From: a virus
Length of the DNA stretch: 64,000 bases
Direction: 5' to 3' (one strand)
IMG/VR virus record: IMGVR_UViG_3300015261_000002
Span: 124,001-188,000 of that record
This document shows positions 57,568 to 60,592 of this stretch, one piece after another (the stretch's first letter is position 1; every line of letters begins with the position of its first letter). The notes below the pieces were generated by a model. The model was not told the DNA's origin, did not search any database, and saw nothing but the letters and a program-made list of their open reading frames with translations. Made by a program: the position numbers and the translations under genes.

Positions 57568-59427
57568 ATGACACAAAATCTTTCACCAATTATCGCGAAA
57601 GTCTGCAAACATGCTCATTATTCAGAGCATCGCTGGGACAAAACCAAAGACCTCCTCACAGCGAAGATCACGAACATCCATGAGGACGGTACTCGGTCGA
57701 CAACCTTTAAGTCCTACGAGAATTACAAGCAGCCGTTCTGGATCATTAAGGAACAGCATCGCAAGTTCAACCAACCAAAGGACTACATCGAAGAACGGTA
57801 CGTCAGGGAATACCGTTGCAATCGTCGTCAGATTCCATTTGAAGTCAAGAAGCAGTTGTTTGGGGCAGCTGATCGCAGTGCTTCGATTTATGACATCAAG
57901 TCGGGCAAAGGTATTCAATACGTGTTTGGTCTTGACCAGACGCCTGCGGTGCATTTGAAGCAACAGTTCTTTAAACGGTATGCGGAATACCAGGAAAAAG
58001 AAAAGTACACCATTGCGGCATTCGACGTTGAAGCCGACATGGAAGCGATTGGTGAAGTGAAACCGATCATGATGGCTTCGGTCACTATGAAGGACAAAGC
58101 TTACTTCGCCGGGTGCCGGGGTTGGTATCAGTCTCGGCAGGACAAGATTGACCCGAAGGTTCGTTTAACTGACTTTGCGATTTTAGCGGAGTTAAAAGCG
58201 GCCGAGAAGAAGTACCTGCAAGAACACTTGGATCGTCGAGGTTGCACGATTGAGTATGAGTTGTTCGATACACCGGGTCAGGTAGCCTTTGCTTGTATTC
58301 AGAAGTTCCACGAGTGGGAACCAGACTGGGTACTGAGCTGGAACGCCGCTTACGATATGGAAGCGTGTGAGCGTGCATTGCGGTCCGAGGGTTATAACCT
58401 GGCCGACGTGTATTGCGATCCTCGTGTTCCAAAAGAGTATCGGATGTATGAACTTAACCTGGGTCGTACACACAAGGTTAAAGAGAACGGCGACCGTACT
58501 CCTCTCGAACCTCAAGAGAAGTTCCCAACCGTTCGTTGTGTAGCAACATGGCAGTGGGCTGATGCCATGTCGGGTTATGCCATCAAGCGATTCTCTTCGG
58601 GTAAGCTCGAGAGTTACTCGCTGGAGGCGACTGCGCAACGGGAGAAGGTCAAGGGTAAGCTGTACACCGAAGAAGGCGCTGATAAGCTCCCAGGGTCTCC
58701 TCAGTGGCATCGATACATGCAGAAGCATTATCCGTATCTGTATTCGATGTACAACATTGGCGATAACTTCCCAATCGAAGAGATCAACGAAACCACGCTG
58801 GACTTTGTACTGTCGATTCCAATGCTGCTGCGTTATTCGGAGTATTTCAACTTCGTTTCGCAACCACGTTTGATTGCAGATACCTTGTCCTTTATTGCGC
58901 GTGAGCATGGTTACGTTTGGGGCAGCACTCCTGCTAAACGGGATAAAGTCTTTACTGACCGACTGCCGACTCTCGACAACTGGATTGCACTTCTCGATAC
59001 TGAGAAGAACGCAGACATGGGTCGGGCAATCTTTATCGGTCTGGATGACGTTATCAGTGCGGGTCGTGGTCTTACTGACGACCTTGACGTTGAAGGGGCG
59101 TACCCAACCGGTACACTGGCTTCTAACGCAGCGAACAAAACCACGCAGATGGAGGTGTATGCCATTCAGGGTGCTAATGACATGAAGTTCCGGGAGATTG
59201 CCGTGAACTATGCCAGCAGTACTCAAGCGAATGCCATGGGTCTGAGTCACGCACTGTTCCGTTTCCCACAAGCCGACAAACTGCAATCTGAGTTTGAGAA
59301 AGGTTTGGAAGAACTGGGTTATGCAGACATGTTGAAGCAACTGCGTGAAAGTGCAGAGAAAGCAAAAGCAGAACGAGAAGCACGTCAAGCCAAAGTCCTA
59401 CCAGAAGTACTGAAAGAAGCGGCGTAA
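57568..59427 (+). CDS. Family-B DNA polymerase N-terminal half: exonuclease and palm motif A
   Basis: Start set at ATG 57568 (AGGA 8 nt upstream). Exo I is FDVEAD with Asp153/Glu155; Exo II is SWNAAYDME with Asn259, Tyr262, Asp263; Exo III Y-x3-D is YNIGD with Tyr395/Asp399. This gives an intact 3'-5' proofreading exonuclease. Palm motif A appears as DLDVEGAYPT at Asp507 (compare DxxSLYPS). The 619-aa protein then ends in a charged helix; I see neither motif B (KxxxNSxYG) nor motif C (DTD). So the catalytic palm is incomplete, and a second polypeptide should supply it, unless these motifs are very divergent. Family-B enzymes are usually 800-1000 aa. Alone in its plus-strand unit behind an early-type box. 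Confidence 0.7.
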   Translation: MTQNLSPIIAKVCKHAHYSEHRWDKTKDLLTAKITNIHEDGTRSTTFKSYENYKQPFWIIKEQHRKFNQPKDYIEERYVREYRCNRRQIPFEVKKQLFGAADRSASIYDIKSGKGIQYVFGLDQTPAVHLKQQFFKRYAEYQEKEKYTIAAFDVEADMEAIGEVKPIMMASVTMKDKAYFAGCRGWYQSRQDKIDPKVRLTDFAILAELKAAEKKYLQEHLDRRGCTIEYELFDTPGQVAFACIQKFHEWEPDWVLSWNAAYDMEACERALRSEGYNLADVYCDPRVPKEYRMYELNLGRTHKVKENGDRTPLEPQEKFPTVRCVATWQWADAMSGYAIKRFSSGKLESYSLEATAQREKVKGKLYTEEGADKLPGSPQWHRYMQKHYPYLYSMYNIGDNFPIEEINETTLDFVLSIPMLLRYSEYFNFVSQPRLIADTLSFIAREHGYVWGSTPAKRDKVFTDRLPTLDNWIALLDTEKNADMGRAIFIGLDDVISAGRGLTDDLDVEGAYPTGTLASNAANKTTQMEVYAIQGANDMKFREIAVNYASSTQANAMGLSHALFRFPQADKLQSEFEKGLEELGYADMLKQLRESAEKAKAEREARQAKVLPEVLKEAA

Positions 59428-59434
59428 AGCAGCT

Positions 59435-59477
59435 ATAAACCCTCCTACTCCCTTTGTCGGGGAGTAGGAGGGTTTAT
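59435..59477. terminator. Bidirectional terminator, 18-bp hairpin
   Basis: 59435-59452 with 59460-59477, 7-nt loop. Convergent junction after the polymerase gene; preceded by the same TAAAGCAGCTATAAACC as at 53325-53341. Confidence 0.8.
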
Positions 59478-59512: not shown

Positions 59513-60592
59513 TTAAGCAGCGATACCAAAGACCTTGTTCAGGGCATTGGACGCTTCGGTCACGCGGGTGTAGTTGGCTTCGATCAGCTTGGACGCTTTA
59601 ACGCCAGTACCAACGATCACACGCAGAGCGGCGATGTCTTTCTGGAGTTCAGTTTTGTCTTTCGCTTCTTTGGCCTTCTTCATCTTCGCTTCAGCGCTGG
59701 CCAGCAGTTTCTCGATGGCCGACTTCTTGTTCTTGAATTCGTCGGAGAACGCCTTCAGGGACACGATGTTGGTGGCGCAGTCTTTGCTGAACTGGATGGC
59801 AGCAGCAGGCTCGGTGATGGAGGTGGCTTTTTCCAGCTTGGCCAGGAACTGAGCGTCCCGGGTCATGAACTTGGTAACCAGGCCAGCCATGTCGATGGCG
59901 TTGTCGGTGAAGTCGGTGTTACCCGACAGGTGACCGGCGGCTTGCTTTTCCTTGTCGCTGCCCTGGGAAGTGGCGAGGGTCAGGAATGCTTTCTTCGCCT
60001 TCACAGCCGCAGCCACAACGTTGGCCAGAGTTGCTTGAGCCTTCTTGTTCATCTTGCCCATTTCTTTCAGGGCAGCCTTGACGGCGTCGCGCTTCTCTTT
60101 CAGGCCCTTCTTCTTGGCGTCAGCGATTTCTTTCGCAGTTGCTTCGGAAACGTTGCCGGCCATCGCGTTCAGTTGCTTGTCGGCGGTGGCTTCGTCCTGG
60201 GTACCCGAAACAGCGGCTTGGAGTTCAGCAGCGTTTTCGTTGCACGCTTCTTTGGCCACTTCAGCGTCTTTGGCGCTGTCACGGTTGAAGAAGAAGTCCC
60301 AGATGGACTTGAAGGTTTTAGCGATGTAGTCATACACCGCTTTGAAGCCGTTGCCGATGGCGGAGAACACGCCTTCGTTACCGGTCACTTGAGCGCCGGT
60401 AATAATGCCAGCAGCACTGAGCACGCCTTGAGCATAACGCTGAGCGTCAGTCAGGGAGATCGATTCGGTACCCGCAACGTCCAGCTGTTCAGCCGTATCG
60501 TTGAGGGCGTCGAACATGATCTCGACGTGCGGTACGTCGGGGAGACCAAAGCCGTCGCCATCAGGTTGGTAGGAGCCTTCTACGTATTCCAT
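59513..60592 (-). CDS. Abundant inner-head processed protein (359 aa)
   Basis: ATG at 60592 with AAGGA 8 nt upstream. Two processing sites: GTE|S at 43 and GNE|G at 73; the second is followed by VFSAIGNGFKAVYDYIAKTF and KSIWDFFF, the family helix. The mature part is Ala/Lys-rich and helical, as in DNA- or core-binding internal proteins. Codons are strongly C/G-ending. It is separated from the other inner-head genes by the polymerase and metallopeptidase block, so the family is scattered. Confidence 0.7.
   Translation of the reverse strand: MEYVEGSYQPDGDGFGLPDVPHVEIMFDALNDTAEQLDVAGTESISLTDAQRYAQGVLSAAGIITGAQVTGNEGVFSAIGNGFKAVYDYIAKTFKSIWDFFFNRDSAKDAEVAKEACNENAAELQAAVSGTQDEATADKQLNAMAGNVSEATAKEIADAKKKGLKEKRDAVKAALKEMGKMNKKAQATLANVVAAAVKAKKAFLTLATSQGSDKEKQAAGHLSGNTDFTDNAIDMAGLVTKFMTRDAQFLAKLEKATSITEPAAAIQFSKDCATNIVSLKAFSDEFKNKKSAIEKLLASAEAKMKKAKEAKDKTELQKDIAALRVIVGTGVKASKLIEANYTRVTEASNALNKVFGIAA

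What the first reader, a model, noticed from the sequence alone, without database searches (positions are those of the whole stretch)
57568..59427. DNA polymerase B truncated after motif A
All three exonuclease motifs and palm motif A are present, but the protein ends about 110 residues after motif A with no visible motif B or C. The stop is followed at once by a strong terminator, so this is not a window artefact. Either the polymerase is split between two genes, or this lineage has very divergent palm motifs.
Basis: partly seen in the sequence, partly recalled or inferred. Interest (0 to 1): 0.65.

Follow-up and report, generated by a model that had tools for sequence, protein, structure and literature searches.

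The report
Split DNA polymerase of giant phage
The gene makes the front half of a DNA-copying enzyme that this giant bacterial virus, like its relatives, encodes in two separate genes; the split was already known, but here the cut is placed exactly: it separates active-site parts that must meet again between the two proteins.

Summary
Confirmed and explained; the split itself is known. The 624-codon ORF (619 aa from the conserved start at 57568) holds Exo I-III and palm motif A and ends 112 residues after the motif A Asp. The window lies in a 224,747-bp EL-like jumbo phage record with a nuclear shell gene. The missing half is a 694-aa divergent family B polymerase (PF20286) with fingers R/K, motif B (KIFNNAQSG), motif C (SDTDS) and KHY, encoded 31 kb downstream, outside the window. 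The stop is no frameshift: 70 of 73 N-half rows end 73-127 residues after motif A. Both halves occur unfused in 40 of 40 records tested. The two models map onto RB69 gp43 residues 1-~388 (motif A by sequence, to 434) and ~447-894, so the catalytic palm must be assembled from two chains. Thomas et al. (2016, 2017) already name this the split-subunit DNA polymerase of phiKZ-like phages. Not seen in the papers I could read: Ser replaces the motif B fidelity Tyr in one clade (72 of 81 split C halves), always with a small residue at the contacting motif A position of the other chain (34 of 34 genomes).

The parts
57568..59427 (+). N-half of split family B DNA polymerase: N-terminal domain, 3'-5' exonuclease, first palm segment with motif A (619 aa; ORF open from ATG 57553)
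58024..58032 (+). Exo I, DVE (D158, E160)
   Evidence: invariant in 73 of 73 rows
58339..58356 (+). Exo II, WNAAYD (W263, N264, D268)
   Evidence: invariant in 73 of 73 rows
58750..58764 (+). Exo III, YNIGD (Y400, D404)
   Evidence: invariant in 73 of 73 rows
59080..59106 (+). Palm motif A, DLDVEGAYP: D512 = RB69 D411, A516 = L415, Y517 = Y416; D510 is an extra invariant Asp of the split family
59158..59424 (+). C-terminal tail (residues 536-624) beyond the RB69-equivalent segment; proposed contact with the partner chain
   Evidence: contact is inference
59435..59477 (.). 19-bp hairpin between convergent genes, probable terminator for both strands
   Evidence: z -6.8; function inferred
59513..60592 (-). 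convergent neighbour ORF of unknown function (phrog_21850), not part of the polymerase

Best explanation
The gene encodes one subunit of the phage's own replicative DNA polymerase, a divergent family B enzyme related to T4/RB69 gp43 that is encoded in two pieces. This chain supplies the N-terminal domain, the proofreading exonuclease and the first palm strand with motif A (one catalytic Asp and the sugar-sensing Tyr). The second chain, 31 kb away, supplies the fingers, motif B, the motif C Asps, the DNA-gripping KHY region and the thumb. The two chains join after translation, so that each polymerase active site is built from both. The cut corresponds to RB69 residues 434-447; about 89 extra residues at the end of this chain and about 86 at the start of the other probably form the joint. 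Shown: both genes, their motifs, complementary coverage, co-occurrence. Inferred: physical association, activity, and the role of the extra segments.
For: Partner found in the same genome: 694 aa, PF20286 E 1.7e-239, motif B KIFNNAQSG, motif C SDTDS. Complementary sequence coverage: the N profile hits RB69 gp43 up to residue 434 and includes motif A; the C profile hits fingers/motif B of other family B enzymes and RB69 705-755. On a full-length 860-aa relative (L240) the N profile ends at residue 424 and the C profile starts at 435. Pfam DNA_pol_B: AR9 N half covers profile positions 45-91, C halves start at 92-103. Structure: N model aligns with RB69 1 to ~388, Z 26.3; C model (L050, 97% identical to the window's partner) aligns with RB69 ~447-894, Z 13.9. 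In the N model alone residues 463-560, with motif A, have pLDDT under 50, as expected of a segment that needs a partner. Both halves in 40 of 40 records. Contacting pocket residues on the two chains change together: 34 of 34 Ser genomes have A/T/S/G at the 415 position, 6 of 6 Tyr genomes L/M.
Against: No complex was modelled (two-chain prediction not on offer) and no activity was measured. The low pLDDT around motif A may reflect the small alignment (28 rows) rather than a missing partner. The correlated pocket change falls on one branch of the tree, so it is a single event, not repeated coevolution. The 40 records were chosen because they carry the C half (35) or were known phages (5), so 40 of 40 is not an unbiased rate; one 39-kb fragment in a second set had a C half only. 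The C model's Foldseek fit is poor (TM 0.25-0.33), probably because of the long helical insert.
Confidence: 0.92

Rival explanations
1. Sequencing frameshift or pseudogene: the true gene is a full-length polymerase and the stop is an error or decay.
For: The ORF ends inside the palm domain, which is unusual for a family B polymerase.
Against: Same stop and tail in four relatives (L009, L010, L011, L014) compared codon by codon, with mostly third-position changes up to the stop; 70 of 73 N-half rows end 73-127 residues after motif A; no motif B/C in any downstream frame; the rest of the enzyme exists as a separate gene.
Confidence: 0.01
2. The two proteins are independent: this one is a stand-alone proofreading exonuclease (with a vestigial palm strand) that only associates with a self-sufficient polymerase, the PF20286 protein, as Iyer et al. 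2021 describe it.
For: PMC7824862 (passages) treats the C half as the polymerase and says its exonuclease is a separate protein. The exonuclease region folds well by itself in the N model.
Against: Motif A Asp/Tyr/Pro are kept in 71-72 of 73 N-half rows, which a vestige would not need. No acidic residue is invariant upstream of the fingers in 42 C halves (first invariant columns R125, K129), and structural coverage of RB69 by the C half starts at about 447, after motif A. The AR9 record itself annotates the N half as exonuclease plus partial catalytic domain.
Confidence: 0.06
3. The two pieces are covalently rejoined, e.g. by protein trans-splicing, as proposed for Nanoarchaeum equitans PolB.
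For: That split archaeal PolB may be trans-spliced through an intein (PMC4104785, passage).
Against: Pfam finds only polymerase families in the C half and none in the N half; the ends are variable in length across the family. No intein-specific search was made.
Confidence: 0.01

Closest known systems
Split-subunit DNA polymerase of phiKZ-like (nucleus-forming) phages: SPN3US gp18 + gp44, phiKZ PHIKZ050 + PHIKZ082, EL ORF021 + gp051, OBP
   Same: Same two families (phrog_2927/PF20286 and phrog_3011), same halves, tens of kb apart, SH3DP-type gene beside the C half; 62% (N) and 61% (C) identity to EL.
   Different: Nothing essential: a new member from a metagenome. The published passages I read do not place the cut between motif A and the fingers.
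T4 / RB69 gp43, single-chain family B replicase
   Same: Complementary sequence and fold coverage of the whole enzyme by the two chains; equivalents of D411, Y416, R482, K486, K560, N564 and the motif C Asps are present.
   Different: Two genes; long helical insert before motif C; L415 to Ala, S565 to Ala and Y567 to Ser in the pocket; extra Asp two residues before the motif A Asp; extra segments at the joint.
Split gp43A/gp43B of T4-like Aeromonas phages 25 and 44RR
   Same: A family B phage polymerase in two chains that co-purify and are active (PMC2988022, passage): the working precedent for this mechanism.
   Different: There the two genes are separated only by an untranslated sequence or a homing endonuclease gene; here they are 31 kb apart, on opposite strands, and the split is shared by a whole lineage.
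Split archaeal PolB (Methanobacteriales; Nanoarchaeum equitans)
   Same: Family B polymerase encoded by two genes (PMC4104785, passage).
   Different: Different lineage and, as that paper proposes, an intein-related origin.

Membership tests
phiKZ-type split family B DNA polymerase | N chain belongs to the phrog_3011 DNA polymerase family | tested here: met
   E 8.7e-186; 62% identity to EL
phiKZ-type split family B DNA polymerase | second gene of the PF20286/phrog_2927 family in the same genome | tested here: met
   G000:C1:214710-216794, PF20286 E 1.7e-239, phrog_2927 E 9.4e-224
phiKZ-type split family B DNA polymerase | SH3DP gene next to the C half | tested here: met
   PF20287 E 3.4e-31 at L006:6912-7322 minus, directly upstream of the C half
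phiKZ-type split family B DNA polymerase | phage encodes a nuclear shell protein (nucleus-forming group) | tested here: met
   phrog_4795 nuclear shell protein E 6.9e-119 at L006:393-2537 minus; a direct search with phiKZ chimallin found nothing
phiKZ-type split family B DNA polymerase | the two chains form one active enzyme | not testable with these tools
   no two-chain model or assay available
Canonical single-chain T4-type family B polymerase | exonuclease and complete palm/fingers/thumb in one polypeptide | tested here: not met
Family B DNA polymerase (two chains together) | motif A D....YP and motif C DTDS | tested here: met
   N chain D512-Y517-P518; C chain D391-T392-D393-S394
Family B DNA polymerase (two chains together) | motif B KxxxNSxYG | tested here: not met
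   K, N and G kept, but Ser and Tyr replaced (KIFNNAQSG); relatives AR9, SA1 and gut phages keep NSxYG or nearly so, so this is a derived change of the motif, not its absence
Frameshifted or decayed polymerase gene | stop not shared by relatives | tested here: not met

The most novel reading that the evidence does not exclude
The replicase of nucleus-forming phages has a re-shaped base-pair-sensing pocket that straddles two chains. The residue equal to RB69 L415 (motif A, N chain) is Ala/Thr/Ser/Gly, and the residue equal to Y567 (motif B, C chain) is Ser; these are positions important for base selection in RB69. An additional invariant Asp two residues before the catalytic motif A Asp marks the split members. 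The enzyme may therefore select nucleotides differently (looser selection balanced by proofreading, or tolerance of altered bases or templates), with the pocket rebuilt from two sides.
Probability: 0.3. Interest if true: 0.55.

Novelty: new member of a known kind. Interest (0 to 1): 0.3.

Why it matters
It also sharpens a known but little-studied system. Records label either half alone as DNA polymerase, and sometimes the N half as a ribonuclease, and Iyer et al. describe the C half as the polymerase; the data here indicate that neither chain alone holds the complete active site. The joint pocket change gives a simple, testable prediction about copying fidelity in nucleus-forming phages.

Tried and rejected
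Frameshift or pseudogene: rejected by codon-level comparison with four relatives and by the family-wide end point. Motif B/C hidden in other frames: none. Natural fusion of the two halves: none among the 227 ORFs hit by either profile in the first 224 loci. In the enlarged set six ORFs were hit by both profiles, all from two records (G044, G045), which encode an ordinary 860-aa T4-type polymerase; this served as the full-length yardstick. One record of ten in the second set (G043, a 39-kb fragment) had a C half and no N half, and in three others (G037, G038, G042) the N half came out in pieces with stops; I did not resolve why. Rows dropped before counts: one search dropped two N and three C fragments and identical copies; one search dropped eleven short C pieces and identical copies; one C row had a gap at motif B; the tree used 39 rows thinned from 83. 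L159 carries 444 residues after motif A, an outlier with no motif B/C. A first profile-wide search for N-half relatives failed for lack of conserved blocks, so narrower queries were used. A direct search for phiKZ chimallin in the genome was empty; the PHROG profile found a nuclear shell protein. Papers: Cornelissen et al. 2012 and Kazlauskas and Venclovas 2011 are not held and were not seen; I know them only from passages that cite them. The statement that the pocket residues are not in print rests only on the searches, of which I opened a few papers by passage.

Full report
WHAT IS THERE. The window is positions 124001-188000 of a 224,747-bp virus record. No near-identical phage is in the GenBank phage collection (19 kb tested), but the protein is 62% identical to gp051 of Pseudomonas phage EL and matches 272 phage records, 251 of them over at least 80% of its length. 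PHROGs names the family DNA polymerase (phrog_3011, E 8.7e-186); Pfam finds nothing.

THE TRUNCATION IS REAL AND ANCESTRAL. In an alignment of 73 N-half rows (the window's own protein is in it twice) the exonuclease residues D158, E160, W263, N264, D268, Y400 and D404 are identical in all rows; the motif A Asp D512 in 72, and Y517 and P518 in 71, the gaps coming from two phages (Goslar, PhiPA3) whose gene is interrupted at that spot. The protein ends 112 residues after the motif A Asp; in 70 of 73 rows the tail is 73-127 residues, the exceptions being the two interrupted genes and one with 444 residues. Against four relatives the stop codon is the same and changes up to it fall mostly at third codon positions, so this is no frameshift. 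A strong hairpin (59435-59477, -34 kcal/mol, z -6.8) follows the stop and separates it from a convergent gene.

THE OTHER HALF. Thomas et al. [quoted passage not shown] Thomas et al. 2016 (PMC5105663, passages) say the same of phiKZ. SPN3US gp44 is the homologue of the window protein (both phrog_3011). Searching the window's own genome with gp18 found the partner at G000:C1:214710-216794, minus strand, 31.3 kb downstream. It is 694 aa, PF20286 divergent family B DNA polymerase (E 1.7e-239), with helix-N residues R125/K129, motif B K155-N159-G163, motif C D391-T392-D393 and K467-Y469. In 77 C-half rows R125, K129 and T392 are kept in 76 and the others in 77. Directly upstream is SH3DP, the SH3-fold protein associated with phage DNA polymerases (PF20287, E 3.4e-31), and further downstream a nuclear shell protein (phrog_4795, E 6.9e-119): this is a nucleus-forming-type phage.

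WHERE THE CUT LIES. Four measures agree. (1) The N profile matches RB69 gp43 up to residue 434, including motif A; the C profile matches the fingers and motif B of other family B enzymes and RB69 705-755. (2) On a full-length 860-aa relative (L240) the N profile stops at residue 424 and the C profile starts at 435. (3) Within Pfam DNA_pol_B the AR9 N half covers 45-91 and its C half 103-211. (4) Predicted structures: the N chain aligns with RB69 1 to ~388 (best row Z 26.3, rmsd 3.9, 367 residues), the C chain with about 447-894 (best row Z 13.9, rmsd 4.4, 373 residues). The cut is therefore between the motif A strand and the fingers. The N model is confident in the N-terminal and exonuclease domains but under pLDDT 50 at 463-560, where motif A lies. 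Both chains carry extra segments at the joint (N 536-624, C 1 to ~86) in place of about a dozen residues in RB69; the C segment is predicted to be folded (pLDDT mostly over 80). That these form the interface is inference.

BOTH HALVES TRAVEL TOGETHER. Of 40 records (35 large IMG/VR contigs chosen because they hold a C half, plus 5 named phages) 40 have an N half and 40 a C half, at separate places. In a further set of ten, seven had both as separate genes, some N halves in pieces; one 39-kb fragment had only the C half, and two records encoded a single-chain T4-type enzyme. Bacillus AR9, Staphylococcus SA1, Yersinia phiR1-37 and Fusobacterium JD-Fnp1 are split as well, so the split appears older than the nucleus-forming family.

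HOW IT WORKS. Using RB69 numbering from PMC3564110 (passages): the N chain supplies metal-binding D411 and Y416 (D512, Y517 here); the C chain supplies R482, K486, K560, N564 and the motif C Asps. Neither chain has a full set: no acidic residue ahead of the fingers is invariant in 42 C halves. The two must assemble one active site. A working precedent is gp43A/gp43B of Aeromonas phage 25, which co-purify and are active (PMC2988022, passage). This differs from the description by Iyer et al. 2021 (PMC7824862, passages) of the C half as the polymerase with a separate exonuclease.

A SIDE RESULT WORTH TESTING. RB69 Y567 in motif B senses base-pair geometry (PMC3564110, passages). In 81 split C halves with data it is Ser in 72 and Tyr in 9 (the single-chain outgroup also has Tyr). 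The Ser rows form one side of a branch with support 100/99 (39 rows). In 40 genomes read for both chains (one of them is the single-chain enzyme) all 34 with Ser have Ala, Thr, Ser or Gly at the L415 position of the other chain and all 6 with Tyr have Leu or Met. In RB69, L415 mutants misincorporate more and Y567 is needed for faithful base selection. This is one evolutionary event, so it is suggestive, not proof of coevolution. D510, two residues before the motif A Asp, is Asp in 73 of 73 N-half rows but Val in the single-chain relative and Ser in RB69.

VERDICT. New here are only the exact cut, the complementary models, the breadth and the pocket residues. I found no statement of the pocket change in the papers I could search, but the two key papers are not held.

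Noticed in passing
L167 (PhiPA3) and L049 (Goslar): The N-half gene is interrupted exactly at motif A (profile position 492/493; the Goslar ORF ends just before the catalytic Asp and is followed by a NUMOD1/HNH ORF): probably a selfish element sitting at the catalytic codon.
   Followed up: partly
P0004 residues 155-165 (L006:4711-6795 minus; G000:C1:214710-216794): Motif B Tyr replaced by Ser throughout the nucleus-forming clade, paired with a small residue at the motif A Leu position of the other chain.
   Followed up: yes
L036 (Yersinia phage phiR1-37, g164-g167): The C half is itself in pieces, separated by small ORFs, between the fingers part and the KKRY/thumb part.
   Followed up: no
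G036, G039, G040, G041: In these AR9-like relatives the two halves are divergent near-neighbours, about 1 to 1.5 kb apart, instead of tens of kb apart.
   Followed up: no
L159:1459-4308 minus (record G031): An N half with a long extra C-terminal region (444 residues after motif A), rich in charged helical-looking sequence, with no motif B/C.
   Followed up: no
G037, G038, G042 (loci L246-L248, L251-L253): Relatives whose N half appears in two or three pieces with in-frame stops; recoding, introns or errors were not told apart.
   Followed up: no
L006:6912-7322 minus: SH3DP protein directly upstream of the C half in the window's genome; a similar small gene precedes the C half in the six phages aligned with it (15-46% identity). 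Possible third subunit, an idea of Iyer et al. 2021.
   Followed up: partly
L006:393-2537 minus (G000:C1:210392-212536): Nuclear shell protein (PHROG family) near the C half, so the phage is probably nucleus-forming; phiKZ chimallin itself did not match by direct search.
   Followed up: partly
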